DNA of 64,000 bases from positions 250,966,901 to 251,030,900 of the forward strand of contig OX352772.1 in NCBI GenBank assembly GCA_947095535.1. The letters are read 5' to 3'. Source of the DNA: Poecilobothrus nobilitatus. Taxonomy: Eukaryota; Arthropoda; Insecta; Diptera; Dolichopodidae. Positions 7,159-62,405 of the stretch are shown here, one piece after another. The notes beneath the pieces were generated by a model. That model worked only from the letters and a program-made list of their open reading frames with translations, made no database searches and had not been told where the DNA came from. Made by a program: the position numbers and the translations under genes. How positions within the stretch are numbered: position 1 is the first letter of the stretch; every line of letters begins with the position of its first letter.

Positions 7159-7159
7159 T

Positions 7160-12682: not shown

Positions 12683-12783
12683 TAGGTTTTATATTTCAAG
12701 TAAAACACTCCAAATTTAAAATATAAATTCAGTTTAATTTATTATTTGCAAAATTATTAGGTAAATAAAAAAAAATTATTGAC
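12683..12783 (-). repeat. Left copy of about 105 bp direct repeat (short LTR or LTR remnant)
   Basis: From TAGGTTTTATATTTC to AATTATTGACT this matches 15377-15486 with few differences. The two copies bracket gag-pol of the minus-strand Gypsy element exactly, which is what LTRs do. At about 105 bp they are short, and the ends lack TG..CA, so the full LTR may be partly lost. Confidence 0.6.
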
Positions 12784-25845: not shown

Positions 25846-26045
25846 NNNNNNNNNNNNNNNNNNNNNNNNNNNNNNNNNNNNNNNNNNNNNNNNNNNNNNN
25901 NNNNNNNNNNNNNNNNNNNNNNNNNNNNNNNNNNNNNNNNNNNNNNNNNNNNNNNNNNNNNNNNNNNNNNNNNNNNNNNNNNNNNNNNNNNNNNNNNNNN
26001 NNNNNNNNNNNNNNNNNNNNNNNNNNNNNNNNNNNNNNNNNNNNN
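25846..26045. other. Assembly gap, 200 N
   Basis: Exactly 200 undetermined bases. The flanks are AT-rich with TATACATA-type microsatellite sequence, a likely reason for the gap. Confidence 1.
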
Positions 26046-33207: not shown

Positions 33208-33328
33208 TATGAATGTTGATGAATGAATAACCTTTTGAGTGAATGAAGCGGGACTTTATATTCTCTTTCTGAGTGTACATTTTGGTATAAATATAGGTTT
33301 GCTATCATGAATAATTAATTATTTAATT
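33208..33328. promoter_or_regulatory. Divergent promoter between accessory gene and ATPase (outer)
   Basis: The 121 bp gap holds TATAAATATAGGTT at 33286-33299 (plus strand), 33-43 bases before the ATPase start. An ATATAAAG box lies on the minus strand (about 33254-33261) facing the accessory gene. The first motif is repeated exactly in the inner Polinton, which supports a conserved core promoter. Confidence 0.6.
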
Positions 33329-34003
33329 ATGTTTTTTCACCCATTTACAATGATGGTGGCTGGGCCAACTTGTTGTGGAAAAACTACTTTTATTCATAAC
33401 CTAATAAAATTAAAAAATAAAATCAAACATCCGCAAATCAATAAAATTATTTGGTGTAACCCAGATAAAAATGCAGTACCGAATGATATAACAGATCTTG
33501 AGTATAGCAACAGTATTCCTGATTTTAGTGATAATAAAAACTCTGTATTAATTGTGATAGATGATATGATATTAAAGTCTTATGATAGACATGTCTGCGA
33601 ACTATTTACTAGAGGATCGCATCATAGAAATTTATCGGTAATATTTGTAGCCCAAAATATATTTCATCAAGGTAAATTTTCTAGAGATATTTCACTGAAT
33701 TGCAAATACATAATTCTTTTTAAGAATCCTAGAGATAAATCACAGATATTAGCATTAGCCCGTCCAATATATCCGAATCAGGTCAAGGAATTTGAGAAAG
33801 TATATAATGAAGTAACATCTAAGCCATATGGTTATATATTAATAGATCTTACTCAAGAAGTTAATGATTTATTTAGATTGAGAAGTGACATTTTCGAGCA
33901 AGATTTGTGTTATTGTACAACAAATCAGTTGGAACAATATGCAAAAGAATATGAAACGATTGAAAATCAACCGACATATATTGCACCTGTTAAAAAATTC
34001 TAA
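33329..34003 (+). CDS. DNA-packaging ATPase (FtsK/HerA, A32-like), outer Polinton
   Basis: 224 residues, close to the usual Polinton length, open throughout. Walker A GPTCCGKT lies at residues 12-19, Walker B VLIVIDD at 73-79, and a conserved polar sensor follows (VAQN at about 107-110) with an arginine-containing RGSHHRN segment just before. The family pumps DNA into capsids. This ORF starts MFFHPFTMMV, with a TATA box just upstream. It is the best-preserved gene of the outer element. At its 3' end it overlaps a small basic ORF in another frame, as in the inner copy. The inner homologue (48839-49522) is roughly three-quarters identical by eye. Confidence 0.92.
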   Translation: MFFHPFTMMVAGPTCCGKTTFIHNLIKLKNKIKHPQINKIIWCNPDKNAVPNDITDLEYSNSIPDFSDNKNSVLIVIDDMILKSYDRHVCELFTRGSHHRNLSVIFVAQNIFHQGKFSRDISLNCKYIILFKNPRDKSQILALARPIYPNQVKEFEKVYNEVTSKPYGYILIDLTQEVNDLFRLRSDIFEQDLCYCTTNQLEQYAKEYETIENQPTYIAPVKKF

Positions 34004-37071: not shown

Positions 37072-37316
37072 GATTAAACTGTAAAATAAATTTATAATAA
37101 AAAATTTTAAATAAACTTTATTTACTTTTGTTTTTACAATTACAATAAAATATGGCAATAGCAAAAACAACACAATAAATAAACAAAAATGTAAAAAATA
37201 ATATAGGGTGTTCAAAATTGAGGTATCATTTTGATTTTGCCGCCATTTTTTTTCTACCTGGTATTTTTATACGAGGTTTCTTTAGGTATATTCTAAATAC
37301 ATTCCGGTTAGTTAAT

Positions 37317-38401
37317 ATGGAACATTACACGAAGGAACAACGTGTTTTTGTTATTACAACATTTTTTGAAAGTGGTAAAAGTTTTCAAGATGTAATTAGG
37401 AAATTTCGAACAAAATTTGGTAGAGAAAATGCTCCAACAAATCGTGCCATCAAGCTGATGGTTGATAAATTTGTAGAAACTGGATCTGTTCTTGATAACA
37501 GAGGCAACATTTATCAACGTAGTGGCCGTTCAACCGAGAATGTAGTAGCTGTGAGCAGAAGTGTTGAAGAAGATCCAAAAACTTCCATTCGTCATCGTTC
37601 GCAGCAATTAAACATAAAACCATTCACATTATTCAACATTTTGCATCGTGATCTCCATTTAAAGGCTTATAAGATCCAGCTGACGCAAGAATTAAAACCA
37701 ACTGACCATGCATTACGTCGGCTATTCGTTTCTTGGGCAATCGAAAAACAAAAGAAAAAGATAATTTTTTTAACAAAATAATCTTCACCGACGAAGCTCA
37801 TTTCCAGCTCAATGGCTACGTCAATAAACAGAATTGCCGCATTTGGGGTGAAGAGAATCCAAAGGTTATCTTAGAGCAACCAGTATATCCACAAAAAGTT
37901 ACGGTTTGGTGCGGTTTCATCGGTCAGGAGGAATCATCGGGCCATATTTTTTTGAAAACGCAAATGGAAATGCGATTACGGTCAATGAAAATCGCTACAG
38001 GGAGATGATCCGAAGCTTTTTTTGGCGAGAAATTGATGATTTGGAGTAGAGAATATGTGGTTTCAACAGGACGGTGCCTCTTGCCACACAGCAAGAGAAA
38101 CAATGGATCTTTTGACGGAAAAGTTCGAAGATCCCATTATTTCTTGTAGAGGAGGAGTAATGTGGCCACCAAGATCGTGCGATTTGATACCGTTGGATTT
38201 TTTTTGTGGGGTTTTGTGAAATCAAAAGTGTACAGCAATAATCCCACAACAATTCAAAAGCTTAAAAACAACATTATCGAGCAGATTTCAACCATTGAGA
38301 ACAGTTTATTGAACAACGTGATTCAGAATTTTGGTAAAAGATTGGAAGCCTGCCGAAGTAGTAGAGGGGGCCACTTGGCCGACATAATTTTTCATTATTA
38401 A
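37317..38401 (+). pseudogene. Transposase of the mariner-type element (broken)
   Basis: It starts MEHYTKEQRVFVITTFFESG, a DUF4817-like helix-turn-helix N-terminus. The catalytic triad is visible as FTDEAHFQ (first Asp), FQQDGASCH (second) and SCDLIPLDFF (third), with 36 residues between the last two Asp. Frames change at about 37770 and 37930, and there is an in-frame stop near 38047. The enzyme would cut and paste at TA sites. This copy cannot. Confidence 0.88.
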
Positions 38402-38461
38402 CCAGAACCTATTTGTAATAAATTAAAATAAAAATATATTTAATATTTCAAAAAAAAAGTC

Positions 38462-40080
38462 TTTATACCCGTACGATAGGATCGGGTATAATAAAATTAC
38501 TCCTCCGTTTGTAACACCTCGAAATAAGCTAGCTAGATATACCTTCAAAGGTATGGATCGGATCAGAAAAAAATTCTAAGACTTTTGAGCCATGTCCGTC
38601 CGTCCGTCGGTCCGTCAGCACGCTAACTCAAAAACTAAGAAAGCTAGAATCTTGAAATTTACACAAAATATTTTGAGAGTAATTTGTAGGTTCCCTATTT
38701 TTTTTGGTTGAGTTTGGACCAAGCCTTAGGGTAGCTCTCGAACACCTAACTTTTAGATCCCCACATTTTTTTTGCAATAGAGCTATGAAATTTTAGCTAC
38801 TGATAGATCTCACAAAAATATTAATTTTATTTTTAATAACTTTTTTTTTTAGCCCCACCCGTTACGGAGCTACAGCTCCCCAAAAGTTCAAAAAAGCTCT
38901 ATATTTAAATTATTATAGCACAAGTTGTATAAGGTATATCTTCATTTTGAAAACGCCAAACGATTACTACTTTCATTAGCTTTAAAAGTTTATATACAAT
39001 AAATATATAATTTTGGCATACGGTGTATTAATTTACCGTTATGCGAAACTCAAATTTTGCAAAATTCTTTAACCCTTCCATCTTCTAAACGGTTAAAGTT
39101 GAAAACTTGAAATTTTGACAGAAGTTAGATCTTGGAAAAGTATGTATGAGTCATTTCAGAAATGACTCAGTATGAGTATGAGTCATTTCAGAAATTTTTT
39201 TTGTATCACCCCCCGTTTAGGAGCTGTAAGGGGTCAAAAACTGAAAATTTCCTATTTTTAAACACCTGTAACTTGAACACCTGTTAAAATTTTTTTGAAG
39301 TAATACACAAAAATTAAAGCTCCAACATTATATTTTTATTTCTGTTAACAACTTTTTTTAATAATATAGGGTTACTTTATATTTGACGAAAGTGTTACTT
39401 GATTTTTTCAAATTTTCTAACAAATTTCTTTAACGAATTTTTTCCATTTTGTTTTACTCGATAATTTGAAATTGTTGAGGATATAATGCGTAGTACAAAA
39501 AAATGTAATTAAATAAACAACATAACGGTTGCTTGAAGAATTTTTATTTATATGATATTGATATATATATACATACTTATATAATATCATGTTTATTTAC
39601 ATATCGTATATGTCGCTAGTGAATGAATGATAGGAGTATAGATGTATATTATATAGCGCCGTATTTACATACATATATGTATTTTATTGTACTTATAAGA
39701 AATTATTCTATCAATGGAATATTTAAATATAATATAATATAATATTTAAAATTATATTTACTGTTTTGTACTTAGTAAATTTAATATACATTTACCGCTT
39801 AGTATTAAATGGTACTATAGAATATTTGAAAAAGTTTTGGATTGATAATCGTTATGTGGAAGGTTAGAATCTGCTTTTGAAGAATGTACATATAAACATA
39901 TAGTTTGAATATATGTACAACCCATAGTTCTAGAAATTATAAAATTCACCCAAATTATTTTAAAATACTAAAATATTAAAAAAATAATATTGTAAGCAGA
40001 GTGACAGGCTGTGAACATACTAACGGTTCGTACGGGTATCTAAGAGTTGACAAAGTCAACTGTATTCTTCCTCGTTTTTT
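38462..40080 (+). repeat. DINE-1-like (HINE) element, long copy 2
   Basis: Same ends and body as the 20406-21861 copy, with a perfect 3' hairpin GTTGAC-AAA-GTCAAC at 40050-40064. It is about 160 bp longer because it retains the segment around 39180-39345. It lies between the transposase stop and the right TIR of the mariner-type element. Confidence 0.92.
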
Positions 40081-40393
40081 ATTAAAATTAAAATGATACC
40101 TCAATTTTGAACACCCTTTATTAAACATCTACAATAATACGGATATAATGTGGTTGGTTGCAAATTCTCTTTATCATTGTCCAAAGATTCAGAAACTTGC
40201 CCTCTTTCTACAAAATTACTGTCCATTTGAAATGTTAAAATGTTGAATAACCAGACTTTTTGAGAAAATTAAGTATTTTTTTTATTAATTTGCAGTGTTA
40301 CTAAGATTAGAACTGACAACTGACTGAATAAAAATTCAAATTTTGAAAAGGTATAAAAAGAATGCATTATCTTTATTGGTATTTATTTTAAGA

Positions 40394-40687
40394 ATGGATG
40401 TGAAAGATTTCTTAGAAAAATACTCATTTACATTATTAGATGAACACAAAAATTATATTTCAAATTTATACAATTATTTAGAAAAATTTGAATTTGTTGG
40501 TAAAGAACAGTCTAGTTCAAAATATGGTACACATTTTAGTTGCTGTCCCTGGGCTTATAATAATTGTACGTCAGAGCCTGACATTTGTAAATGCTATTTT
40601 GTGGAAAAATATAACAAAGAATTAGAAAAGTTAATTAAATGGTATAAGCATAATGTCAAAAGCTCAAATTGTAATGGAAATTCATAG
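40394..40687 (+). CDS. Small Cys-rich ORF before the integrase
   Basis: 97 residues from the ATG at 40394 (an earlier in-frame ATG at 40343 is possible). It shows a KYSFTLLDEHKNYISNLYNY helix-like start and a Cys cluster, CCPWAYNNCTSEPDICKCYF. I do not recognise it. Its 3' end overlaps the integrase start in another frame. It has no counterpart in the inner element, which also lacks the integrase. Confidence 0.5.
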   Translation: MDVKDFLEKYSFTLLDEHKNYISNLYNYLEKFEFVGKEQSSSKYGTHFSCCPWAYNNCTSEPDICKCYFVEKYNKELEKLIKWYKHNVKSSNCNGNS

Positions 40688-41567
40688 ACCAGCAAGGCGT
40701 AGATATCCTAGTAGGAAATTCTTACAAAGAGGTTTAAATGATACTTGGCAAATTGATTTAGTTGAAATGATACCATACGCAAAGTTTAATAATGGCTTTA
40801 AACATATGTTAACTGCCATAGATATATTTTCTAAATACGCATATGCTGAACCTGTAAAAACAAAGAATGCTGAAAATGTTTTAAATGCCCTGAAATCAAT
40901 TTTTGAGCGCGCTAAAGTTATACCCAAAAATATTCACTCTGATCAAGGCAAAGAGTTTTTTAATTCACAATTCCAAAACTATATGAGAGAAAAAATAATC
41001 AATCACTATTATACATACAGTGAATTAAAAGCATCAATTGTTGAACGATTTAATCGTACAATGAAAAATTCTATGTGGAAAAAATTTAGTCTAAATGGAA
41101 ATTATAAATGGTTATCTATTCTGCAATCAATAATAAAATATTATAATTTAAGAAAACATTCTACAATAAAGCTTCCACCTGAAAAAGTTACGGGAAAAAA
41201 TGAAAGAAATATATTGAAAAATATATATATGCAACCTAAAATTTTTTAAAAAAGTAAATATAAGGTTGGTGAATATGTAAGAATAAGTAAATATAAAAGT
41301 CACTTCGAAAAAGGCTATCAACCAAATAGGTCAACTGAAATATTTAAAATTGATAAGATCAATAATACCTATCCAGTTACATGTCAATTATCAGATTATA
41401 AAAATAATCCTATTTCAGGTGGTTTCTACAAAGAGGAACTCACTCCTGTTAAATATCCAAATTCTTACCTCGTAGAAAAAATTATTAAAAAACAAGGTAA
41501 TAAAGTTTTTGTTAAATGGTTAGGGTTCAATGATGATCATAATACTTGGATTAATAAAAAAAAATAG
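40653..41567 (+). pseudogene. INT: Retroviral-type integrase with chromodomain, outer Polinton
   Basis: The catalytic core is seen in DTWQIDLVEM (first Asp), NIHSDQGKEFFN (second) and KASIVERFNRT (Glu). After a single in-frame TAA at 41247-41249 the frame goes on with an SH3-like segment (KVGEYVRISKYK, GGFYKEELTPV) and a C-terminal chromodomain (YLVEKIIKKQGNKVFVKWLG, then an aromatic NTWI) to the TAG at 41565-41567. Polinton integrases insert the linear element DNA and make the 6 bp duplication. Apart from the one stop it is complete for these parts. Confidence 0.9.
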
Positions 41568-41730: not shown

Positions 41731-42911
41731 CTAGTTTGATATTATTTTAATTTCAGGAACTGTGATAACTTTATGCTCTTTATTACGTCGAATATTTTGT
41801 GAAAGTATGTATATATCGTTGTCTTCCTTCACATTTAGCACCGCTTCTTTAATTGTATTAAAATTAATTTTTTGGGAGGCTGTATAGTTTAAACAAATTC
41901 CTTTAACTTTACAAACTAGTTTTTCTTCATTGTCTTTCGTACTGTGAACTTTATATGCATAGTTTTTAGGGCCTCCACTTACAAATTCTGTAATGTAACT
42001 TCCAACACCATAACATTCTAGTTCATCGGTCATATCTCCTATAAAATCCCCTGTTTGGGGTTCATATTCTCCTGTACGACTTATATATATTACGGAATCA
42101 GTGTCATAATATAAAACTCTATCCTTTAGTTTTTCTAAATAACTATATAATTTTAATCGAGCTTGAGTAGTTGTGTAAGCTGCAATACATACATTTACAG
42201 TAGATAATGATTCACCTGCTTCTTCTTTGTACTGCCAATTAACTATAATGTTTTCCTCACTTACTGGAAGAATACCACAAACGTCTATAGATGGATCTGT
42301 TAACATGTCATATAAATCCTTAGATTGATTAATAATTATTGTTTTTTGTAAGTTTTCTCTCTGTCCAAATTTACCCCAAAAAGAACTAAGCATTAATTTT
42401 GCAAAAGATCGTAGTCGCTGATTATTTACAATTTCATTAAATTCTAGTTGAATATTTTCATTTCTAAGAAAATCCGTTATATACTTTCTCTTCCTTTGTT
42501 ATACAGTTCCTAGGCCATCCCGATGCCTGTTGTTTTATTTTTAAAAATTTGTTCATCATCTGTGTGAAAAGACCATCTGTTTTTGTTAGACCATTGTATT
42601 GACATATGTTGTAACTCCATATTTCATGAATTTCTAATATTTTATATTTCAATTCAAGAGCTTTTAACACTCCATCAATAATCCATGTTCCAAGTAAAGC
42701 TCTTTCGTTATCATTATGTAAACAAAATTCATTTAGGTTTTTTTCCTCACTACATGTGCGACATAAGGAAAACATTAATTTGTTGTTTTGTTTTACAGTT
42801 AGGATGACCGTGATAATAACATCCATAAAATTCAAAAACTTGATTAGTTTCTGAATAGAACCATCAACTTTTACCCCGGCTACGACAGCTTCTTTTTTTT
42901 AGCAGCATGCC
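41731..42911 (-). pseudogene. POLB: DNA polymerase B, C-terminal part (outer Polinton)
   Basis: The minus strand from the junction at 42911 reads first the region ahead of the palm, with a Cys/His box near 42810-42780. It then jumps to ERALLGTWIIDGVLKALELK, IHEIWSYN and KIKQQASGWP, then (42393-41731) LMLSSFWGKFGQRENL and the catalytic YYDTDSVIYI. The stretch that should hold motif A (DxxSLYP) is absent, and frames change at about 42855, 42745 and 42470-42400. The protein would be a protein-primed replicative polymerase. This piece belongs to the same gene as 51916-54080 beyond the inner Polinton. Confidence 0.9.
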
Positions 42912-43487
42912 AGTAGATAGGTAGGCACTTGGGCCAGATAGGTCAGTAGGTTAAGGTCACCCGTAAGTAGGTCAAGGTCACCCGTAAGTAGATCAAGGTC
43001 ACCCGGAAGTAGGTCAAACTGTAATTAGGTCAGGCAGGAGTAGGTTAACGATATTAAAGTAGGTCAGACAGGCGGCGGCGACCGTCAGACAAGTCTTGTT
43101 GTTTATAAGGAATGTATACTTGTTTTAAGTAATAGGTAAACATGGAAATAGTAAGAAAAAATATTTTTTTTATGCTTGCAAATTTTAAGATGTTGTTGTT
43201 TGTTGTTTTTTTCTTTCGTTTTTTTATGAAGTATTTAAAGAAGAGGAAAGAAAAACCATTAATTAATTGTTATGTAAGAATGTTGAAAAAAAAACAAGAA
43301 ATCAAAAATATCTAAAGTGGTACAGGTCTACTTCTTATTGATGTATACTTGGCTTAAGTAATAGGCGCATATGAAAAGTAGAAACAAAAAAATGGTTCAT
43401 GAATGTAAAAGGAAAAAAACAAAAAAAAGTTTAAACGTACAAGATAGAACAATTTTAAAAGGTACAACGCATCTTTAAAATTCATAA
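42912..43487 (+). repeat. Inner Polinton left TIR
   Basis: 576 bp, the inverse of 51363-51915. At 42951-43018 it contains just over three copies of a 21 bp unit built on AAGGTCACCCGTAAGTAGGTC; further in come GTATACTTG-type motifs near 43115 and 43340. Confidence 0.95.
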
Positions 43488-43547
43488 CTCAACTTTTATT
43501 TTCAAATTTAATTCATTTCCATTCTGACTGCTCAACAACTCGCTGAA

Positions 43548-43844
43548 ATGCTGCCTGATTCCACATCATTTCCATTTAAAGAAACTGTAGATGATGTAAA
43601 TACACAAGGTCAGATACAAGAAAATGAAATTACGTCCACCATGGACGACGAAGATTTAGCAGAAACTGAGGAATTTATACCACCGTTCCAGATAGTTGAC
43701 TTAGAAGACGAAGAAGAAGAAGTGGAAGAAGAAATTGAGGAAGATGAGGAAGCAGTTCTATTTAATGAAATTTGGGACATAAATAATCAGCAGGGAGATC
43801 TTGATTATTTCAATGATTTAATAATCCTAAATAATTTTAATTGA
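43548..43844 (+). CDS. Small acidic protein next to the left TIR (inner)
   Basis: 98 residues, open. It is strongly acidic, with a Glu/Asp run at about residues 53-69 (DEEEEVEEEIEEDEE), ending in an Asn/Asp/Leu-rich tail. It is transcribed inward from the TIR, opposite to the main operon-like gene row. No family recognised and no equivalent in the outer element. Its composition is typical of disordered chaperone-like or transcription-related proteins, but that is only a hint. Confidence 0.55.
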   Translation: MLPDSTSFPFKETVDDVNTQGQIQENEITSTMDDEDLAETEEFIPPFQIVDLEDEEEEVEEEIEEDEEAVLFNEIWDINNQQGDLDYFNDLIILNNFN

Positions 43845-43917
43845 ATAATCTAATGAAGGTGTACAGAAAAATATTTGTCTATCTAGAACATATAAATAAA
43901 AAATAAAAATTTTTATA

Positions 43918-44413
43918 TTATTTGTTGTGATTTATTTTGTTTGTTTTATGTAGTATATTACAGATTTGTTCCTTTAAAATTACAGGAATTTCAAAAAATA
44001 ACCTTGAATAATTACATTGTACATTAAAACGTTGTATTGGTACATAAATTTCTCTTTCTAACCTAAATACTTGTTGTTCGACACATAAATTTGGATATTC
44101 CCGAACATAGTCTTTTACATTTATCTCAGCAGATTTATAATAGGTCATGCTTCTTCTTTGTTAATACTTATACTTTGCCCGTTCGCTGATTTTAGTCCAT
44201 TATCAGTTTATCGAGTTTTTTGTTAAATTCGTAATAAAATTTATTCCATTCATGATATTTTAAGACAATTGACTTTTTACCAATACGGTGAATTATACTT
44301 GAGGCTTCAAATGATTCACAGTCAAATCCAACAGCAATTTTTAATGTATGACTCTTATTGAGAAAATATGTGTAACTTAGCAATAAATTTGTGTTCTGAC
44401 CTGGTGCTTCCAT
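43918..44413 (-). pseudogene. Conserved unknown Polinton gene (inner copy)
   Basis: 44413-44192 reads LLLSYTYFLNKSHTLKIAVG and RIGKKSIVLKYHEWNKFYYE. 44148-43918 reads NVKDYVREYPNLCVE and EIYVPIQRFNVQCNYSRLFF. Both parts match the outer gene at 36560-37071 in order, but a segment between them present outside is missing here and the frame changes. Function unknown. It is the last gene of the minus-strand row. Confidence 0.6.
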
Positions 44414-44449
44414 TCCTTTAATTTTACTAAAACCTGTTTATATTGTTTT

Positions 44450-44936
44450 TATTATTTATACGTTTTAGGAACACAAATTTGTAATGAGTTATATTTTCCA
44501 AATACATTTTGAAAGGTACTTAAAATATACTTATCGTTTTCTAGTTGATTTCCTTTATTAAATATTTTTAAAAAAGCGTTCATACTATAACCGCAACATC
44601 TATACCACGTAAAAACACAACAATATTGCCCACAGACATCTGAATAGTTACTTTGTAAATGTTTCTTATTAAAAATTATACATTGGTTTTTTAAGTAACT
44701 TATAAATTCTAATTTATCTCGTTTTCTACCAAACGAATCAAAGTATTCAACACAGCCATTTTTTGGCTTAAAAATAGCTAACCAATGTGTTCCCGGATCT
44801 TTTGATTTATCAGTGTTTACAATTAAAAAAGTTTGTTTTTCAATTATCCTGGGGAGTTGATCCAGAGCAAAAACTCCTTTAATTTACGTGTGTGTTTGTT
44901 ACATCTTAATACGTCACTTATCTCTAGGGTATTCAT
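44450..44936 (-). pseudogene. PRO: Cysteine protease (adenain/Ulp1-like), inner Polinton
   Basis: The ATG (44936-44934) shares a base with the stop of the preceding gene (TGATG). A frame change follows after about 20 codons (about 44880). The remaining frame is open to the end with the catalytic His (DPGTHWLAIF), the CVEYFDSFG box and Gln-Cys (VCGQYCCVF), followed by a Cys-rich YRCCGYSMNAFL. Apart from the one lesion it looks complete. It would process capsid precursors. Confidence 0.85.
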
Positions 44937-45268
44937 CAATCAAATTGACTCAAGTCATATACTTTAGTTGTTTCTTTATAATTTGATAAAAACTCTTTTT
45001 TGATTTTTTTATTTGTTATAATAACATCAAATTTTTCTAGTATTTGACAGAGCTCTTTATTTATTTTATCGTTGTACACAGTTCCAAAAGAGTAATTATC
45101 AAAATTATCATTTATAAAATCCCTAGTTGGAAATTTATACTTGAGCTCTTTTACAAACTTTTTACAAGGTTCTTTAAAACCAACTATACAAATATCTTTC
45201 GTAAACAAGGTATTATTATCATCACTACAAAATATTATATCCAGAAGTGCACAAGACAGTGAAATTTT
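44936..45268 (-). pseudogene. Accessory protein upstream of protease, 'LLDIIF' type (inner)
   Basis: The frame CALLDIIFCSDDNN..FTKDICIV and then LKYKFPTRDFI, LEKFDVIITNKKIKKEFL and VYDLSQFD parallels the outer 35708-36043 protein. The codon where the outer ATG sits is ATT here, so the native start is lost; the next in-frame ATG would begin at 45208 (MFTKDIC) and drop the first strand. Relative of the IVDLQF protein; function unknown. Confidence 0.65.
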
Positions 45269-45302
45269 GTCAAATATTCAAATTTACTTTTATGTATGCT
45301 AT

Positions 45303-46605
45303 TTATAGGTTTGAGAATATATTTCGGTTTTTATCAATTTGTATGCTTGCATCAAATTATCCATAAACAATAGCAGTCAGTGTAGATGTAAGTGGTTTTG
45401 TAGCCTTGCCTCAATTCTAACTGTACCTTGATTTAGTAGACCTTGACACACTTCATTTCCTGATGCATCTGGAGTTAAATCAAAAGCTAGAATGAAAAAC
45501 CCATTACTCAACATGGTTTTTGTTATCTGATGACCTTTATCATTATGGTAAATTCCAGTTTCTGAAAAAAGTGTACTGTATGCTCTTGTACAGGAATTAT
45601 TTTCATCTGAAAAACTGGTTTCAATTGCTGAATTAGGTATTTGAACACCATTTACGTTTAACACAAATTGTGAAATATCAAAATGTTTAAAATTGTATGT
45701 GTTTTTTGACATTTTTCCAGAGTAACCTGTATTTTCTGTCATGCAAAAAATGATTGTGTTTGGCAACTGTCAAATAAAAACATTATCAAGTGATATTGAT
45801 GAACTATTCTGTGGAATGGTAAAAGTTTTTACCTCTACCCGTTTGTAATTGTATTTGGCATTAGTTTTTCCCAATACAGCATTATGTGCTAATAGCACAC
45901 TAGGATTAATTGTTACATGTCTCATAAATAAAGTGGCTTCTAAAATTTTCAGTTGAGATTCATCAGTATCATCTGCAAAGAGGTAAAACTTTGGTTTTTC
46001 TTATGTTAGGACAACTCGAACATCGACATTGTTTATGAGAAGTGTAGGTTGGTTAAACATATCTAAATGTAATTTCCCCATAAGTTCCACTACATTGCTA
46101 TTTTGGTATAATTTTTGACGTTCTTTTGAACCACTATTATCTGTTTTTGCTATACTTGGCTTATCTAGCATCCATCCACCACATTCCAAATGAGTTGTAG
46201 CGGCATCCGTACCATAATTTAACAATGATTCAATATAAGCTCTGTAATGATAATTGCCATCTGATGGAGATATATTCTTTCCATTTAGTTGAACATTACA
46301 TTGTTTTATTAATGAATGTAACATATTATTAACCACACTTGGTTGTTGTATAGGTGTTCCATCAGTTTTTTTATCTTTATTCCATTGAGTTCCATCTTTT
46401 TTTAAAATTTGTACTTTTAATTTTAGATATGTCGACAAGACAAGTCTCTATATGTATCACCGTGCCCTAGTAAAACAAATTCTATGACAGATGGATTATC
46501 TAAAGAAGCAATAGGGTTATAGAAAACTTCTTCAGATCGTAAAATACTTGACTGAATAGGCTGTGTTTTAAAAATATCAAGCTCTGATTTCATGCATTCA
46601 ATCAT
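45303..46605 (-). pseudogene. MCP: Major capsid protein, inner Polinton (broken)
   Basis: It starts MIECMKSELDIFKTQPIQSS. Conserved blocks follow in three frames: SVIEFVLLGHGDTYRDLS (46605-46423), LKLKVQILKKDGTQW, LLHSLIKQCNVQLNGK.. and NYHYRAYIESLLNYG (46438-46001), then TENTGYSGK, HFDISQFVLNVNG and FFILAFDLTPDA (45766-45377), and a C-terminal tail ending at 45303. Frame breaks lie near 46430, 46000-45780 and 45385, plus a stop in the tail near 45340. Double jelly-roll capsid protein; close to the outer copy across its length. Confidence 0.9.
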
Positions 46606-46607
46606 AA

Positions 46608-46982
46608 TTATTCAAAAATACCTTTTTGTTTGTTTTTGCTATTAACTTTGCGTCGCTTCGACGTAAAATAATTTAAATTATTAATGAGAGGTCTTTGTAT
46701 AGGTTTACTTCGTTTTCTTTTGCCTTGTCCATACATTTCTTTAAGTTTCCGAACTGCACCTCGTCTTACATTTTTCATTATCTCTTTACTTCGATCTTGA
46801 ACCACTTCTTTCACATTTGCACCTGTGGCAATATCAGATAATGCATTAATACCAGAGTTAATAACCTCTTTTTTTAATATATTAGCTCCAGACGTAAATA
46901 TTGGTTTTAAATATCTAAAAAGACCACCGAAAAAGCTCCCTAACCCTCGCCCCCTTTGGTAAGGTACAATTGAGTGTAACAA
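46608..46982 (-). CDS. Basic capsid-associated protein with 'GRGLGSFFGGLFRYL' motif
   Basis: 124 residues, open. An amphipathic N-terminal segment (YQRGRGLGSFFGGLFRYLKP) is followed by Ala/Gly-rich helices and a Lys/Arg-rich tail (RRGAVRKLKEMYGQGKRKR). Proteins of this pattern are common in Polintons and adintoviruses and have been likened to adenovirus minor/core proteins acting inside the capsid; that role is inferred. The true N-terminus may lie a little upstream, since the frame stays open to about 47040 without an ATG, behind an AG that could be a splice acceptor. It lies between the penton-like gene and the MCP gene. Confidence 0.7.
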   Translation of the reverse strand: MLHSIVPYQRGRGLGSFFGGLFRYLKPIFTSGANILKKEVINSGINALSDIATGANVKEVVQDRSKEIMKNVRRGAVRKLKEMYGQGKRKRSKPIQRPLINNLNYFTSKRRKVNSKNKQKGIFE

Positions 46983-47060
46983 AGGACCAATATCCTCAAG
47001 ACCTTTTCCTGATTGAACTAAATAAATAAAATAATATATAGTTTGTAAAATCGCTTTAAT

Positions 47061-47876
47061 TTATACTTTTTTAAAATGTAACACAATTTTTGTTGGAATT
47101 GAACTATTGGAAAAGTTTATTTTGTATCCATATTTATCACATAAAAGTAATGAAATGTTATTAAATGATTTCTCCACATTGCAATATTGAATATTACTGA
47201 ATTCTTTTACAGTATCAGTGAAAGAACTTTGTATGTTAACAGATCTTAAACACCTTATATCTTTATCACCTATTTTTTGAGGTTCAATTATATCTGTGTA
47301 TATAAAAAACATATCTGGTTTACTAATGGGAATCAATTGTAGACTATCTATAAAAGTTTTGAAAGCTTCTATTACACGTGATTTATATTTTTTAAAATCT
47401 GTAACCTTAAAAGATACTTAATTGAAACATGTTGTCAAAAGTTCTTCGAGGGTATAAGCGTAATTTGCTCTTATTTTTATATCTATTTTAAGCTTAGTAA
47501 CACATATTGTGGTGTAACTTAAATTTTTAGGCATCTCCTCAGCTTTTATTGGTTGTGTATAATTAACTTCATCGTTTATAAAATTAAAAATTTCCCAAAT
47601 CAACTGTCGTTCAACTTCTTTTCTTGTAAACCTATTAAGTGGGCGTATATTTTGAATTAGTGTTGGTAGTAGAAAAACTTTCCAGTCGCATATCATTTGT
47701 TTTTCTATGTATGGAATATATGATGTTCCAACTCCTATCATATCTTTCTGCATACCTTTAATAAATATTTGAGTACTTTTTTCCCATTCTTCACCATACA
47801 CATTTGGAACGAAATCATTAACATACATTTCTGAAATACCGACTCTCCACCTTGAATCACACATGTATTTATTCAT
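47061..47876 (-). pseudogene. mCP: Minor capsid (penton-like) protein, one in-frame stop
   Basis: 47876-47418 begins with a conserved SRWRVGISEMYVNDF strand. A single TAA ends it, but the same frame runs on without shift to 47061 with the typical C-terminal box (MFFIYTDIIEPQKIGDKDIR, NNISLLLCDKYGYKINFSN, KIVLHFKKV). Polinton minor capsid proteins are single jelly-roll pentons at the capsid vertices. The position before MCP fits. The outer element has lost this gene in its 1.85 kb deletion. Confidence 0.8.
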
Positions 47877-47877
47877 T

Positions 47878-48585
47878 TTATGTTGTCCATGAGCTTGCGG
47901 ATTTATTCTTACGAATTGGAAAATTAAGTTCTGTTTGAGTATTACCTACTACTGACCTTAAAACACGTCTTGATGAATTATTCAACTCTTTGCTATTTAT
48001 AGTTTTTTCTTTTTTCGTTGGTGGGCTTGGGCTATCTAAAGGAACAGTTATAATGTCTCCTGTATCAGTTTCAAAAATTTGTACATTTTGATTTCTAATT
48101 GATTTTCTTTTTCTAAGACATTTTCCAACTGAAGCAGCTGACAATGCTTTTGTTAAAACATTTTCCTGAATTTCATCATCAAATACTTCGTCATCAGCTT
48201 CTTTTTCATATACTTCTTCTTCTTCAGGAACAACTTGTATTCCTACATTCTTATATTCAGGAAAATGCGATTGAGCTTCCGCATCTATATACATTGGTTT
48301 TGCACGAGTTTGAGTACCTTTTGTTTCCGTAATTTTTACTTTCTCCTCTTTATTTCTAGGAAGTACTCTATTCTTGTTTCTTATTTTAAATAGATTTTGT
48401 CTGTATAAATACCATTTTGGAGTGTCCGTGAGATGTTTATTTAACAATATTTTTTTCATATTTTTATCCAACTCATTTAATTCAAAGTCTGCATTTTGTT
48501 TCATTTTCTCATAAATCTCGGGTTTTAGTATAATCATTTTGTTAAATGTTGTATTATTCATTTTATAAAATTTCCGATTATCCAT
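47878..48585 (-). CDS. Polinton unknown protein, 'LNELDKNMKKIL' family
   Basis: 235 residues, open. An N-terminal helical domain (KMIILKPEIYEKMK, LNELDKNMKKILLNKHLTDT, WYLYRQNLFKI) is followed by a low-complexity acidic stretch (VPEEEEVYEKEADDEVFDD) and a basic C-terminus. The N-terminal pattern recurs in arthropod Polinton proteins of unknown role. It overlaps the small basic gene by 28 bases and ends two bases before the penton-like start. Missing from the outer copy. Confidence 0.65.
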   Translation of the reverse strand: MDNRKFYKMNNTTFNKMIILKPEIYEKMKQNADFELNELDKNMKKILLNKHLTDTPKWYLYRQNLFKIRNKNRVLPRNKEEKVKITETKGTQTRAKPMYIDAEAQSHFPEYKNVGIQVVPEEEEVYEKEADDEVFDDEIQENVLTKALSAASVGKCLRKRKSIRNQNVQIFETDTGDIITVPLDSPSPPTKKEKTINSKELNNSSRRVLRSVVGNTQTELNFPIRKNKSASSWTT

Positions 48586-48851
48586 GATAGTACTGCACCA
48601 AGAAGTGTAGGTAAAAATTCACCACGTTGAATAATGATTTTTCTTTTACTATTTATAGATTTTTGGCGGCAAATGAGGGATCTCAATTCCTTTTTATACT
48701 TTCGTAATTGGGTTGTTGATTTTTTACTTAGATTACAATTACTTTTTAAAATATTTAAAGCAATTTCACAAAATGTTTTGATTACTTCAGAGTCACAATG
48801 TTTTATACTTACTTTCTGAAATTTCGGTTTAGAGCTTTTTAATAGGTGCAT
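48558..48851 (-). CDS. Small basic Polinton protein with hydrophobic tail
   Basis: 97 residues, open. It shows SSKPKFQKVSIKHCDSEVIK, a helix with conserved Cys (FCEIALNILK), a basic middle (RKYKKELRSLICRQ), then KRKIIIQRGEFLPTLLGAVL and a hydrophobic end. A common small gene of arthropod Polintons, perhaps a virion or membrane-associated protein; function unknown. It overlaps the ATPase stop by 13 bases. The outer version has lost start and end. Confidence 0.65.
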   Translation of the reverse strand: MHLLKSSKPKFQKVSIKHCDSEVIKTFCEIALNILKSNCNLSKKSTTQLRKYKKELRSLICRQKSINSKRKIIIQRGEFLPTLLGAVLSWIIGNFIK

Positions 48852-49522
48852 GACGGTTGACCTTCAAACGTTTCATATTCTTTGCCAAATTGTTCTAATT
48901 GATCTCTTGTACAAAAACACAAACCTTTTCCAAATATATCACTTCTTAATCGAAATATATCATTAACGTCTTGAGTAAGATCTATTAATATATACCCGTA
49001 TGGTTCTGACGTCACTTCATTATATACTTTTTCAAATGCTTTGATTTGATTGGGATATATTTGGCGAGCTAGAGGTAATATTTGCGATTTATCTCTTGGA
49101 TTTTTGAAAAGTACTAGATATTTACAGTTAAGCGAAATATCTCTTGAAAATTTACCCTGCTGAAAAACATTTTGTGTTACAAATATTACAGATAAATTTC
49201 TACGGTGTGATCCTCTAGTAAATAAATTACATACATACTTATCATGGGAATTTAACATCATATCATCGATAATAATTAACAAAGGTTCTTGATTGTCATT
49301 AAAATCCGGAATAGTGTTACTATATTCCACATCTTTTAAATATTTTGGAACGGCATTTTTGTCTGGATTACACCAAATAATTCTATTAATATGTGGTTGT
49401 ATATTTTCTTTTTTATACTTTATTAAATTATGAATAAAAGTGGTTTTACCACAGCATGATGGCCCCGCTACCATCATTGTAAATGGATGAAATATAATTG
49501 TTGTATTAGTTAAAAATAGCAC
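48839..49522 (-). CDS. DNA-packaging ATPase (FtsK/HerA, A32-like), inner Polinton
   Basis: Open throughout. Walker A GPSCCGKT, Walker B LLIIIDD and the TQN sensor are all preserved, as is the RGSHRRN segment. There is no ATG at 49522 (the codon is GTG), so translation probably begins at the MMVAGPSCC methionines near 49477, or the first ATG has been lost. TATAAATATAGGTT sits just upstream (49527-49540, minus strand). First gene of the minus row; divergent from the accessory gene at 49591. Confidence 0.9.
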   Translation of the reverse strand: MLFLTNTTIIFHPFTMMVAGPSCCGKTTFIHNLIKYKKENIQPHINRIIWCNPDKNAVPKYLKDVEYSNTIPDFNDNQEPLLIIIDDMMLNSHDKYVCNLFTRGSHRRNLSVIFVTQNVFQQGKFSRDISLNCKYLVLFKNPRDKSQILPLARQIYPNQIKAFEKVYNEVTSEPYGYILIDLTQDVNDIFRLRSDIFGKGLCFCTRDQLEQFGKEYETFEGQPSCTY

Positions 49523-49590
49523 TTTTAACCTATATTTATATGAAAAGCTCTTTTGCCGAAGTAAATATAAATATAAATTTATTTATTCTA
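49523..49590. promoter_or_regulatory. Divergent promoter between ATPase and accessory gene (inner)
   Basis: On the minus strand TATAAATATAGGTT (49540-49527) is identical to the outer ATPase promoter box. On the plus strand TATAAATATAAA (49566-49577) lies 14 bases before the accessory ATG at 49591. Confidence 0.6.
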
Positions 49591-50090
49591 ATGAGTATTC
49601 TTACACAAACCGTCGACATGGTTAAACGAGTTCTCATAGTTGACCTACAATTTTTACAAGGAAATGAAAAGCAATATTTCCAAAAAGAATTAGCCATACT
49701 TGAAAAAGGAAGTTTAATTCCAACTGTCTATCACTTCAAAGCACCGTACCCCTCAGAGGACTTAGTCCGGATATGAAATATAATAACCAGTATTGCGAAA
49801 ATAAAATAAATGGATTTAAATGGAATAACGGTCTAGTTGAATATTTAGATGTAAAATACATATTAAAACACTATTTAGAGTTAGCTGAAAAAATTTATGT
49901 TAAAGGAGAACAAAAAAAACTATTCCTTCAAAAGTACATTGACAATGACAAAATTGAAGATTTAAGCAGAAACTTGCCGTCGTTATAAAAGATTGATAAC
50001 TTTAAATCAAATTGTCCTATACACTTATTAAATAACAATTTCAGATGTGCTGTTAAAAATTGTTATAATGTATATATGTATCTTTTAAAA
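49591..50090 (+). pseudogene. Accessory protein, 'IVDLQF..KEL' family (inner copy), frameshifted
   Basis: It starts at ATG 49591, or at 49618 by analogy with the outer copy. The first frame holds LIVDLQFLQGNEKQYFQKEL and YHFKAPYPSEDL to a break at about 49770. The second (49773-49988) has ENKINGFKWNNG and EKIYVKGEQKKLFLQKYI up to an in-frame stop at 49986; the sequence goes on with similarity to the outer C-terminus (FRCAVKN, VYMYLLK) to about 50090. Function unknown. Confidence 0.7.
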
Positions 50091-50099
50091 TAAAAAATG

Positions 50100-51362
50100 T
50101 TAGATTAAGATTATAAAATTGTAAAATATTTTTAAATAAAAAATTATTTCAAACATATATTTCATATAAATAAATTTGTTTTATTTTTTTTTAACACAAC
50201 ATAAGAATATACATCTTTTTTTTGTTCTACATTCTTACATATCAATAAAATCTAAAAATACTAATAATTTTTTCTTTCCTCTTCTTTAAATATTTCATCA
50301 GAACAAAAAAGAAAAGAAAAAAATTCATCTCAAAATATCAATTTGGTCAAGGTTGATTCAGATTTAAAAACCAGCTTTGCACTTTTTTCTTCAAATTTTA
50401 AAAATTCGCATAGGTACACTTAATTTGTTTAAATTTTTCTCTTTACATTTTATAAAAACGCATTTTTTCTTACTATTTCCATTCACGCCTATTACTTAAA
50501 CCACATATTAGATATTTTTGATTTCCTGTTTGTTTTCTTTTTATTCATATTTTTGTCAACATTCTTACATAACAATAAAATCTTATACGGTGATACTAAG
50601 AATTTTTTTCTTTCCTCTTCTTTAAATACTTCATAGAAAAAAAGATAACAAGAAGAAATAAAAGCATCTCAAAATTGCATCAATTTTGTCAAGGTTGAAT
50701 CTTTATGTAACATTTAAAAACCAGTTTGCACTTTTTCGTTTAATTTTTTTAAAATTAGTTTTAAAATTTTAAAGAAACGTTGTTACACATCTTTTTGTTC
50801 TGTTTTCATTTTTCTCTTTAAATTTTATAAAGCATTTTTTCTTATTCTTTTCATATACGCCTATTACTTAAGCTAAGTATACATCAACAAGAAGTATACC
50901 TGTACCACGTTAGATATTTTTGATTTCTTGTTGTTTTCTTTTTATTCATATTTTTTTCTTGAACACAGAATAAATCTGTTTTATTTTTATATTCTTGTTT
51001 TCAAAAATAGGTGACAAATGCAATTAACCTGACTTGAATTTTTTTCTTTTTTTATTCTTCACAGATTATGCAACATACAATGCACTTAAGCAACATGTTA
51101 GTCGTTAAGTACTTCCACAGCTTCAATTTCCTGGTTGTCTTCTTTCCATTCATATTTGTTTTTGAACATTCTTACAAACAAAAAATATCTTACACGACAC
51201 ACCGACAGTAATCATTAGTTTTTTTCTTTTATCTTCTTTAAATAGTTAAAGTAGAAAAAAAAAAAAAAAACAACACAAATAGTTAGGTACATCTAAAAAC
51301 GCATAATTTTTTTCAAGGGTTTGATCATTATGTAGACAGAAAAACAGGTTTGCACTTTTTCT
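50100..51362. repeat. Non-coding subterminal region with TIR-derived repeats (inner right side)
   Basis: No gene. It contains several diverged copies of blocks that also occur once in the right TIR: TTTCTTTCCTCTTCTTTAAA (about 50268, 50608, again at 51593 in the TIR), CGCCTATTACTTAA (about 50488, 50858, 51483) and AACATTCTTACATAACAAT (about 50558 and 51563). The left side of the element has only the TIR copy, so the right side has grown by repetition. Confidence 0.75.
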
Positions 51363-51915
51363 TTATGAATTTTAAAGATGCGTTGTACCTTTTAAAATTG
51401 TTCTATCTTGTACGTTTAAACTTTTTTTTGTTTTTTTCCTTTTACATTCATTAACCATTTTTTGTTTCTACTTTTCATATGCGCCTATTACTTAAGCCAA
51501 GTATACATCAATAAGAAGTAGACCTGTACCACGTTAGATATTTTTGATTTCTTGTTTTTTTTTCAACATTCTTACATAACAATTAATTAATGGTTTTTCT
51601 TTCCTCTTCTTTAAATACTTCATAAAAAAAACGAAAGAAAAAACAACAAACAACAACATCTTAAAATTTGCAAGCATAAAAAAAATATTTTTCTTGTTAT
51701 TTCCATGTTTACCTATTACTTAAAACAAGTATACAATCCTTGTAAACAACAAGAGTTGTCTGACGGTCGCCTCCGCCTGTCTGACCTAATTTTATGTCGT
51801 TAACCTACTCCTGTCTGACCTAATTACGGTTTAACCAGCTTCCGGGTGGCCTTGACCTACTTACGGGTGACCTTGACCTACTGACCTGTCTGGCCCAAGT
51901 GCCTTTCTATCTACT
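51363..51915 (-). repeat. Inner Polinton right TIR
   Basis: 553 bp, the inverse of 42912-43487, with fewer copies of the 21 bp GGTCACCCGTAAGTAG unit than the left TIR (51845-51885). Ends at CTATCTACT, followed by CATGCC. Confidence 0.95.
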
Positions 51916-54080
51916 CATGCCTAATGTTAATATTCCGTTTTTCCTCCCATCAAACCAACCATTGAATAGCTGCCTTTGATTGGTTATCTGAATACCTACC
52001 CCCGTTTTTGGGTATTAAACCAATCGTATCTGGTTTTAAAAAATTACGTCTAAATGCAAGATTACAAGCAGACGCTATAGTTGTGGTCTCTAGAAAAGGT
52101 TCAACGTTACATTCTCGAAGAAAAAATTCTCTGAACTTTAAGTATGATTGCGTTAGTATTGCTACGTCATTTATACAATATTTTATAATATCATTTTCCA
52201 TATAGAATTCATCATTTTTGTGATCTTCAAACCATTTCAGAAATACTCCACGTTCGTTAGTTTTCATGGTATCTGGGTTATAATATTCAACAGGTGGTAA
52301 TGGTTCAATATAATTTTTATTTTCCGTTATATTCAAGAGGTGCGGGAAATATCCTTTTTTCAAATCAGCTTGTAAATCAAAAGCCTTTGCTAATTTTGAT
52401 AATGCCATTGCAAAGTAATTAATTGAGTCTATAAATTTTATGTTATCTAATAACATCATGATAATTTTTGAACCTCGCATAATTAGTTTAGTTTTTAAAG
52501 AGGTTTTTTCTAATATAATATTGAAAATAAATTGATGGTCAAAAGATTGTCCATTATGTGCTATTACCACGACAGTTTTGAATTCTTTTCTTATCTCCAT
52601 TATGTACATCAGAAATTACTCTATAATATTTCCCTCTTTAATTCCTCTTCTTCTAAATTTACATGTTTCACAAAAATATAACGAGGACAACGAAATACAT
52701 GCGTCACATCTTTGCTCGAAAACACACAAATTTGGTTCATGTAGTTTAATATCTGATAGAATGCCTCTTATATACTTCTCTCCAAAAGCTTTTTCTTGTT
52801 GTGTTTCCAAATCGTAAAATATATAAATAAAATTTTTTAGTTTAGGTTGATTTTTGTTTTGTTGAATAAAACATTTATGATTCTCAGGAACATAGTTACT
52901 GCAAATCTTGCAAAAGTATTCCCCATATACATGGTTTCTGTCGGCTCTATAAAGTTTTAAGCAAGACAAATATTTTTTAACTTCGTCACAAATACTGTTG
53001 CGTTTTGAACTTGACGCCCTATGGTTATCTAAACATATTCGACCTCGAAACCAACGATTACAATCATTGCATAAAATTTGTTTTAAATTATTAAGACATG
53101 GTGGAGAATTTTGACAGCATGGACATGTTCCTGTGCATCTATGATTACTTTTGTTGTTGTATGGAATGTGGCAATCTTCACAATAATAACTCGCGCAAAA
53201 GGTTGCAGTCAGCGATTTTATTACGTTGTAGTGATTTTTATAAAACAAAAAATTTAGCCGTTTTTCAGGTCCAATTCCTTCAAATATTACCTCTCTGCCT
53301 CTTGTTCCCCATTTGTACATAACAATTTTATAATTTTTCAAATATTCTTTAAACTTTTTGAGTTCCTGTATTCCACAACATTTATTTGGAATTTTTAGTT
53401 AGTTCGATAGCTTTTAAAGTTTGTAATTTTCCTGTATCATTACGAATTTTGTGTTTGTAGTTCTTATCATTTTTAGTTTGTGATATTGCCACAATTAAGG
53501 CCTGAGGTAGACATAAATTGTTTTTGTTTTTAATGCAAATTATTCCCTTTCGCTTTAATCTTTCCTCATCATATGATGAGTATTTTCCCAAATGGTAGCC
53601 TTACAGAAGTAACTGAAAGACAAAATGTATCTGTGCTTAAACCTGTAACATAAAAACAAAATAAAAGTATTAATAATAAAAATAATAATGAAGTATTTAT
53701 TTAGTAGTTACCTTCAGAATTACTTTGAAAAATTTTTGATATCATTTCCCATACATCAGAAAATGTTAGATCGCCTGCATTTCTAAAACTTAGCCATCCA
53801 GGACCATGTTGCTGGAAGCTTTCTTCACAGAATGTTAATCCTACCTTATCTAGAGGGTGCAAATCAGTTGTAACATCTTGAATTATTTTATACAATGCTG
53901 TTTTATCCAGTTAACCGGTTCTACGTTATTAGGAACTGAATTAATTATAAACTTGACTTTACGTCCGCGTACGTTAAAACGTTTGAATACTGATGCTGAA
54001 TCACTTTCAATCCTATAGGGAAGTGATTCTATCTCCGGTGAATGATTAAGAAATCTTTCTAATAAAATTTTTTTTGACAT
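51916..54080 (-). pseudogene. POLB: DNA polymerase B, N-terminal and exonuclease part (outer Polinton)
   Basis: It starts MSKKILLERFLNHSPEIESL at 54080. The N-terminal domain follows (HPLDKVGLTFCEESF, WEMISKIFQSN), with a frame change near 53890. An intron-like gap at about 53650-53710 (minus GTAACT... to ...TTACAG) separates it from VTSVRLPFGKYSSYDEE. Then come a Cys/His-rich region (53341-52616: CASYYCEDCHIPYN, CTGTCPCCQNSPPC, FIYIFYDLETQQE, whose YDLE is the Exo I box) and the exonuclease continuation (VVVIAHNGQSFDHQF, FIDSINYF, YCINDVAILTQ). In-frame stops lie at 52618-52616 and 51952-51950, with a frame change near 53390. The gene is cut at 51921/42906 by the inner Polinton. Confidence 0.92.
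53650..53711 (-). other. Probable intron in polB
   Basis: Minus-strand GTAACTACTAAATAAATA starts it and a pyrimidine-rich TTTTATGTTACAG ends it, about 60 bases. This is a typical fly intron length, and joining the flanks keeps the conserved N-terminal pattern of Polinton polB. Confidence 0.65.
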
Positions 54081-56160: not shown

Positions 56161-56556
56161 TGCTAAAAAAAAAAAAACGAAGATGCTAATTGTTATTTTG
56201 TATTTCTTCCTATAGTAAAACTAGTTAACCAACACAAAAAAAAACACGCATTCCTTAAAGATACACTTTAAAACTAGTTCACCAACATTAAATAACACGT
56301 GCTTTAATATTTACATATAATAGTTGTGCTAACTATTTTCATGTTGACCTATTATAATATACAATCAAAGAGCTCTAAAAGACTTGTTTTACCCTACCTT
56401 CTAATAGAATCCAGGTCACAACACTTCCGGTTTCTCTAAAAGTCAAGGTCATTCAAATAAAGGTTAATTTGCGTGGGCGTGCGATATGGTTTATTCGTAC
56501 TAGGTCGTGCGATATGGGCTTATTTTTTCCCATGCCAAAATGCCCCTATACCTACT
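56161..56556 (-). repeat. Outer Polinton right TIR
   Basis: 396 bp, the inverse of 32058-32443, ending CCTATACCTACT, then CACTAC. Confidence 0.95.
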
Positions 56557-62338: not shown

Positions 62339-62405
62339 AAGATATGGGTGATGGTATACTTATATCCGAGAGACCTTTAAACGAATTTTCATGACATTGT
62401 AATCA

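What the first reader, a model, noticed from the sequence alone, without database searches (positions are those of the whole stretch)
42906..51921. A Polinton inserted inside the DNA polymerase gene of another Polinton
The inner element has its own 550-576 bp TIRs (AGTAGATAG ends) and a perfect 6 bp duplication CATGCC at 42906-42911 and 51916-51921. The DNA on either side is the two halves of one minus-strand polB gene. With one CATGCC copy removed, the reading frames on both sides are in phase across the junction and the conserved sequence continues. This is a direct record of one virus-like transposon jumping into the replicase of a relative.
Basis: seen in the sequence. Interest (0 to 1): 0.92.

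Follow-up and report, generated by a model that had tools for sequence, protein, structure and literature searches.

The report
Virus-like transposon nested in its relative
In what is probably a fly genome, a 9-kb virus-like transposon that keeps remains of its coat-protein genes but has no replicase or integrase gene sits inside the replicase gene of a related virus-like transposon; the jump is real, but such nesting is to be expected where these elements are abundant.

Summary
The insertion is real. The inner element, 42912-51915, has TIRs of 576 and 553 bp (92%) and is flanked by CATGCC/CATGCC. Both flanks belong to one polB gene. Of 39 other scored outer-family places, 16 were fetched; in 14 of them window bases 42906 and 51916 map to one base: natural empty sites. 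None of the 16 reads CATGCC, yet both target copies here do, which argues against an assembly join.

The inner element is not a complete Polinton: ATPase, protease and (broken) double-jelly-roll capsid genes, no integrase or polB found. Relatives with the same ends include L034 (intact 433-aa MCP frame, cut integrase), L035 (integrase and a fragmented polB) and L036 (integrase and polB matches, capsid genes deleted in the stretch read). Three capsid-side deletion junctions recurred at no dispersed locus among the places scored, so spread of a capsid-only form is not shown. Known kind of event in an unusual setting.

The parts
42906..42911 (.). left copy of the 6-bp target-site duplication CATGCC
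   Evidence: 42906 maps to the same base as 51916 in 14 of 16 other places examined
51916..51921 (.). right copy of the target-site duplication CATGCC
42912..43487 (+). inner element, left terminal inverted repeat (TIR-C), 576 bp
   Evidence: 39 other scored places match it at 91-96% (40 scored of 1953 candidates)
51363..51915 (-). inner element, right TIR-C, 553 bp
   Evidence: 92.0% identical to the left TIR; 26 substitutions in 553 aligned
50193..51362 (.). subterminal repeats related to the TIR; in L034 and L035 matching sequence occurs at the opposite, integrase/polB side
43512..43844 (+). acidic 110-aa ORF of the inner element, no Pfam match
43918..44437 (-). gene of unknown function (187-aa ORF in L034), split here
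44452..44883 (-). adenain-like protease (Peptidase_C5, E 8e-5)
45306..46605 (-). major capsid protein gene, broken here (frame changes and stops); 433-aa open frame in L034; a 91% identical homologue folds as a double jelly-roll MCP
47064..47903 (-). matches a 305-aa ORF of L034 (its residues 26-305), one stop here; candidate minor capsid protein (label by position, recalled; no Pfam match)
48839..49582 (-). packaging ATPase (Pox_A32-like), no stop over the matched residues
32058..32439 (+). outer element, left TIR
56168..56556 (-). outer element, right TIR, 93.1% identical; flanks CACTAA / CACTAC (5 of 6)
33311..34003 (+). outer element, packaging ATPase
40635..41249 (+). outer element, retroviral-type integrase (rve, E 4e-16)
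41731..42911 (-). outer polB, downstream part (homologue residues 449-918 matched at 42898-41962, 484-631 missing), frame changes
51916..53398 (-). outer polB, upstream part (homologue residues 1-445 at 53251-51917, two in-frame stops)
37199..40123 (+). second insertion in the outer element: mariner-like transposon (DUF4817 protein, 40-bp inverted ends at 95%), absent from the L010 copy
   Evidence: 'mariner-like' is a recalled label

Best explanation
A Polinton-type integrase inserted an element with TIR-C ends into the polB gene of a resident copy of a different, high-copy Polinton family, duplicating six bases (CATGCC). The insertion itself is shown by the empty sites. The inserted element is today a 9-kb internal-deletion derivative: TIR-C ends around a capsid-gene module, without integrase and polB. 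One edge of the deletion lies at the inner limit of the left inverted end (43487) and the other in the module (43484), with four bases shared by both. Inferred: the enzymes that moved it were either its own, if the deletion came after insertion, or came in trans from a relative that had integrase and polB. The target was one of many Polinton copies, and the hit in polB needs no special targeting.
For: Empty sites at the same base in 14 of 16 places examined. Both target copies carry a C that none of those 16 places has. The polB halves match complementary parts of one 918-aa natural frame. No polB or integrase match in the inner element (ORFs scanned; tblastn, where the only integrase-query hits in the inner element are a 19-20-residue tail that comes from TIR sequence). 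The L033+L026 relative has an outer-type TIR, inner-type capsid module (89-99%), integrase and polB sequence of the outer type (about 95%). L034 has the same module ending in an integrase cut at its junction with TIR-C sequence. L035 shows TIR-C sequence with its own polB and integrase matches. The terminal 24 nt of inner and outer TIRs align better than shuffles (score 13 against a mean of -2.6, 0 of 2000; over 40 and 60 nt, 1 and 3 of 2000). First-look candidates number 498, 1953 and 2525 (only 40 scored in each).
Against: TIR divergence runs the unexpected way: inner 26 of 553, outer 12 of 378 substitutions, although the inner must be the later arrival; the difference was not tested. Whether the internal deletion preceded or followed insertion is undecided, because its junction was seen nowhere else among 40 scored places. 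The polB of L035 lies in several separate ORFs, so that copy is not itself a working helper. Target duplications of the other elements looked at are mixed (L020/L021 6 of 6, L009/L010 none; L036 6 of 6, L034 5 of 6, L035 none). No reads were available.
Confidence: 0.9

Rival explanations
1. The inner element had integrase and polB when it inserted, and lost them later through an ordinary internal deletion in place.
For: The deletion junction 43487/43484 was not seen elsewhere among 40 scored of 1953 candidates; the same holds for L034's junction and, outside a local tandem copy, for L015's, as expected of one-off deletions. Its capsid genes are also decaying.
Against: Nothing found excludes it. 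Window and L034 both lose the integrase/polB side, which might hint at a pattern, but both were met by following inner-module sequence, a biased sample.
Confidence: 0.45
2. The inner element was already capsid-only when it jumped, and was replicated and integrated in trans by a relative that had the enzymes.
For: TIR-C elements with integrase and polB sequence exist; the terminal 24 nt are alike between families; the L034 element, also without polB in the 9.4 kb read, is flanked by a 5-of-6 target duplication.
Against: No shared deletion junction at dispersed loci was found among the places scored. A target duplication is equally expected if the deletion came later. No intact helper was identified among TIR-C copies read.
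Confidence: 0.45
3. Assembly chimera joining two unrelated copies.
For: The genome holds many similar copies, which makes misjoins easy; no reads were available.
Against: No gap near the junctions (only N run 25846-26045); both target copies share a base found in none of the 16 other places examined; the flanks abut to the base at empty sites.
Confidence: 0.03
4. The inner element preferentially targets polB of rivals (directed hyperparasitism).
For: It lies in the replicase of a relative.
Against: One case; none of the 16 other polB sites examined is occupied by this element. With many copies of both families, chance nesting is expected (inference; no rate was computed).
Confidence: 0.02

Closest known systems
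Polintons / Mavericks (polintoviruses) of insects
   Same: 6-bp target duplication, long inverted ends beginning AG, A32-like packaging ATPase, adenain-like protease, double-jelly-roll MCP; the outer element adds rve integrase and family B polymerase
   Different: No polB or integrase found in the inner copy. The family definition and the AG-end rule are partly recalled; polB, integrase, TIRs and 6-bp duplications are named in passages of PMC12220804
Truncated virophage elements (EMALEs) of Cafeteria (PMC8547959; passages read)
   Same: Shortened elements still flanked by inverted ends; capsid-module exchange between types
   Different: That paper's truncated type 8 lacks recognisable morphogenesis genes, whereas the inner element keeps such genes and lacks replication/integration genes; the passages do not say what its other two truncated elements lack
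Nested retrotransposons in polinton-like viruses and virophages (PMC12220804, PMC8547959; passages read)
   Same: Mobile element inserted within a virus-like element, sometimes in coding sequence
   Different: There the inserted element is a retrotransposon; here it is a Polinton-family element
Polintons without capsid genes (PMC4028283; passages read)
   Same: Concerted loss of one module; L036, in the stretch read, resembles these
   Different: The inner element shows the opposite loss

Membership tests
Polinton/Maverick (outer element) | family B DNA polymerase gene | tested here: met
   DNA_pol_B_2, E 2e-18 on the right flank; gene is broken
Polinton/Maverick (outer element) | retroviral-type integrase | tested here: met
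   rve E 4e-16 at 40635-41249
Polinton/Maverick (outer element) | inverted ends and 6-bp target duplication | tested here: met
   TIRs 93.1%; flanks agree at 5 of 6 bases
Polinton/Maverick (inner element) | inverted ends and 6-bp target duplication | tested here: met
Polinton/Maverick (inner element) | family B DNA polymerase gene | tested here: not met
   no Pfam match in the inner ORFs scanned and no tblastn match of a 918-aa homologue in the inner element
Polinton/Maverick (inner element) | retroviral-type integrase | tested here: not met
   tblastn with L034's cut integrase found only a TIR-derived tail
Polinton/Maverick (inner element) | virion genes: packaging ATPase, protease, double-jelly-roll MCP | tested here: met
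   Pox_A32 and Peptidase_C5 matches; model of an MCP homologue, pLDDT 87.5, best PDB match Sputnik (E 2e-16, TM 0.65), then iridovirus, mavirus and PBCV-1 capsid proteins. The MCP gene is broken in this copy.
Helper-dependent (satellite) element | mobilised in trans by another element | not testable with these tools
   only indirect: alike 24-nt ends and TIR-C relatives with integrase and polB sequence
Helper-dependent (satellite) element | the same deleted form present at several dispersed loci | tested here: not met
   0 of 39 other scored places for the window junction, 0 of 39 for L034's, only a local tandem copy for L015's; only the 40 best places are scored, so low-ranking copies could be missed

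The most novel reading that the evidence does not exclude
The Polintons of this genome behave like a divided virus: some TIR-C copies carry capsid genes without replicase and working integrase (L034, window) while others carry replicase and integrase with the capsid genes deleted (L036). They share ends, so the parts can complement each other, and a capsid-only part was carried by a helper into the replicase gene of a relative.
Probability: 0.12. Interest if true: 0.75.

Novelty: new member of a known kind. Interest (0 to 1): 0.4.

Why it matters
It is a base-exact record, with natural empty sites in the same genome, of one virus-like transposon landing in the replicase of another. The genome also holds shuffled Polinton copies: one capsid module with two kinds of ends, and copies that have lost opposite modules. 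That makes trans-mobilisation of Polintons, and module exchange between their families, open to direct test in an animal host.

Tried and rejected
Phase across the junction: tested by coordinates and rejected. TIR regeneration after truncation (the explanation given for short EMALEs in PMC8547959) was considered because L034's integrase cut coincides with the edge of an extended inverted end. It was set aside, not excluded: the polB-side end of L035 runs on with TIR-C-type sequence for about 0.9 kb beyond the start of that stretch, so a plain internal deletion with one edge inside a long end suffices. Amplified capsid-only family: three junctions tested, none dispersed among the places scored. 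Search of IMG/VR with an MCP piece: 7 pattern matches, none confirmed; phage records with an ATPase: none. Paper searches: 2 papers held any of six phrases for nested, inserted or non-autonomous Polintons/Mavericks, both for 'insertion', seen as listings only; no nested Polinton pair was seen in the listings or passages looked at, which cover only the open library. Passages of PMC6431247 and PMC8097293 added nothing on nesting. A count of TIR ends by pattern did not complete, so copy numbers rest on first-look candidates. dN/dS was not run, and L035 and L036 were not scanned against Pfam.
Full report
WHAT WAS CHECKED. The window lies at C1:250966901-251030900 of a 944-Mb genome in 84 contigs. 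The best named match of the capsid protein of L034 is from Condylostylus longicornis, a long-legged fly (82% identity over the full length; lineage), so a dipteran host is likely (inference).

THE INSERTION. The inner element runs from 42912 to 51915. Its inverted ends are 42912-43487 and 51363-51915, 92.0% identical over 577 columns, and it is flanked by CATGCC on both sides. One search scored 40 places for the left flank: the window and 39 others. I fetched 16 of those 39 and compared the two flanks with them as separate queries. One search gave 24 rows: the window itself and 23 rows that collapse to 16 places, because seven places had been fetched twice. In 14 of the 16, window bases 42906 and 51916 fall on the same base, which is an unoccupied site. 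In the other two the right flank resumes about 20 and 70 bases further on (L003/L022 and L006/L018 minus). At the target the 16 places read CATGTC (15) or CATGTT (1); none reads CATGCC, while both copies in the window do. That base is therefore private to this outer copy among those seen, and was duplicated by the insertion. No assembly gap lies near; the only N run is 25846-26045.

THE TARGET GENE. A natural 918-aa polB frame in L026 (DNA_pol_B_2, E 3e-42) was compared with the flanks separately. The right flank, 53251-51917, covers residues 1-445 with two in-frame stops. The left flank covers residues 449-461, 462-483, 632-742 and 740-918 in three different frames; residues 484-631 are missing, in agreement with about 460 bases that the seven copies have and this one lacks (some other copies have less there, for example about 240 in L032 and 350 in L027). 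Counting codon positions on each side, the two halves are one base out of phase. The open stretch across the site (best of three frames) is 41 codons at the window's left junction and 94 to 937 codons at the 16 other places, taking the larger value where a place was fetched twice; many copies of the family are decayed too.

THE OUTER ELEMENT. It spans 32058-56556 with TIRs 93.1% identical and flanks CACTAA / CACTAC. It carries an ATPase, an rve integrase and polB, and a second insertion at 37199-40123, a mariner-like transposon absent from the otherwise similar copy in L009/L010, which is about 15.65 kb long. The window copy also lacks about 2 kb of capsid genes that L010 has. Target duplications of two other outer copies: L020/L021 AACGTG on both sides; L009/L010 none.

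THE INNER ELEMENT. It holds an A32-like ATPase, an adenain-like protease, a major capsid protein gene and several further ORFs. The MCP gene is broken in the window but is a 433-aa open frame in L034. A public homologue 91% identical to that of L034 was modelled (mean pLDDT 87.5); it matches Sputnik, iridovirus, mavirus and PBCV-1 capsid proteins. No polB or integrase match was found in the inner element.

RELATIVES IN THE GENOME. (a) L033+L026: outer-type TIR, inner-type capsid module (89-99%), integrase and polB sequence of the outer type (about 95%); polB is one 918-aa frame while the integrase lies in two ORFs, and the far end was not read. (b) L034, 9.4 kb of the interior of a 10.5-kb element with TIR-C ends: the same capsid module, then an rve integrase ORF of 149 aa cut where TIR-C-type sequence begins; flanks TCCCTC / TCTCTC, 5 of 6. 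The cut falls before the place where the third catalytic residue would be expected (motif knowledge recalled). Its protease gene is not one open frame (one frame tried; no ORF of 70 aa or more there). (c) L035, 6 kb of a 12.8-kb TIR-C element: polB matches (73-75% DNA identity to the outer one) spread over several ORFs and an integrase match (70%; a 193-aa ORF); its flanks show no clean duplication. So a TIR-C family with its own polB and integrase exists, though this copy's polB is fragmented. (d) L036, 6 kb of an 11.7-kb TIR-C element: the ATPase end at 95%, then a jump (inner 49206 to 44701) that removes most of the ATPase, the 305-aa gene and the MCP, followed by integrase and polB matches (72-75%); perfect duplication CTTCTA / CTTCTA. 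The rest of this element was not read. (e) L015: an outer-type TIR joined directly to the inner capsid module, in a local tandem. These elements are mosaics: capsid modules and ends occur in different combinations.

COPY NUMBER AND JUNCTIONS. The search tool scores only 40 of its candidates. The inner left TIR had 1953 first-look candidates; 39 other scored places match it at 91-96%, and none continues directly into the module as the window does. The junction of the capsid module with the other end (49800-50700) is shared by 38 of 39 other scored places (2525 candidates), so TIR-C-type sequence joined to this capsid module is an established combination. In contrast, the deletion junctions of the window and L034 were found nowhere else, and that of L015 only in its local tandem copy, among the places scored.

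MECHANISM. Shown: integration into polB with a 6-bp duplication; no detectable integrase and polB in the inner copy; relatives that have both. Inferred: a Polinton integrase did the joining. The outermost 24 nt of the inner and outer ends are alike (score 13 against a shuffled mean of -2.6, 0 of 2000 shuffles as high), and extending to 40 or 60 nt lowers the score (8.5 and 7.5; 1 and 3 of 2000), so the likeness sits at the very end; this would suit recognition of both by related integrases. Whether the inner copy lost its enzymes before or after the jump cannot be decided here. Substitutions between ends are 26 of 553 for the inner and 12 of 378 for the outer, the reverse of the order of events; small numbers, unequal ends at integration or gene conversion could explain that, so I draw no date.

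NOVELTY. Nesting of mobile elements is common. In the passages I read, retrotransposons nest in polinton-like viruses and virophages (PMC12220804, PMC8547959), shortened virophages keep inverted ends (PMC8547959), and some Polintons lack capsid genes (PMC4028283). Searches showed no Polinton-in-Polinton case in their listings, which does not prove that none is in print. I rate this a new member of a known kind, with an unusual and testable setting.

Noticed in passing
window 37199-40123: Mariner-like transposon (DUF4817 protein, 40-bp inverted ends) inserted in the outer Polinton; pieces of the same element recur in other fetched loci (L014, L015, L019).
   Followed up: partly
L011/L012 (C2:101905500-101925499): An outer-type element lies directly beside a piece of a hybrid element (integrase at 82% plus inner-type 43484-44148 at 97%), possibly the reverse nesting, outer family into an inner-type element.
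   Followed up: no
L028 and L029: Two outer-type polB copies lie within a few kilobases of each other, in opposite orientation in L028 and in the same orientation in L029.
   Followed up: no
window 34158/34160: The outer copy lacks about 2 kb of capsid genes present in L010, at a sharp junction.
   Followed up: partly
window 2691-3110, 6008-8461, 12776-14475, 60449-63458: Reverse-transcriptase, protease and integrase matches of LTR-retrotransposon type; 2691-3110 matches an envelope family (Pfam Baculo_F, E 5e-7).
   Followed up: no
window 2111-2219, 20547-20655, 38602-38710: A 109-base repeat in three places (84%), one of them inside the mariner-like insertion.
   Followed up: no
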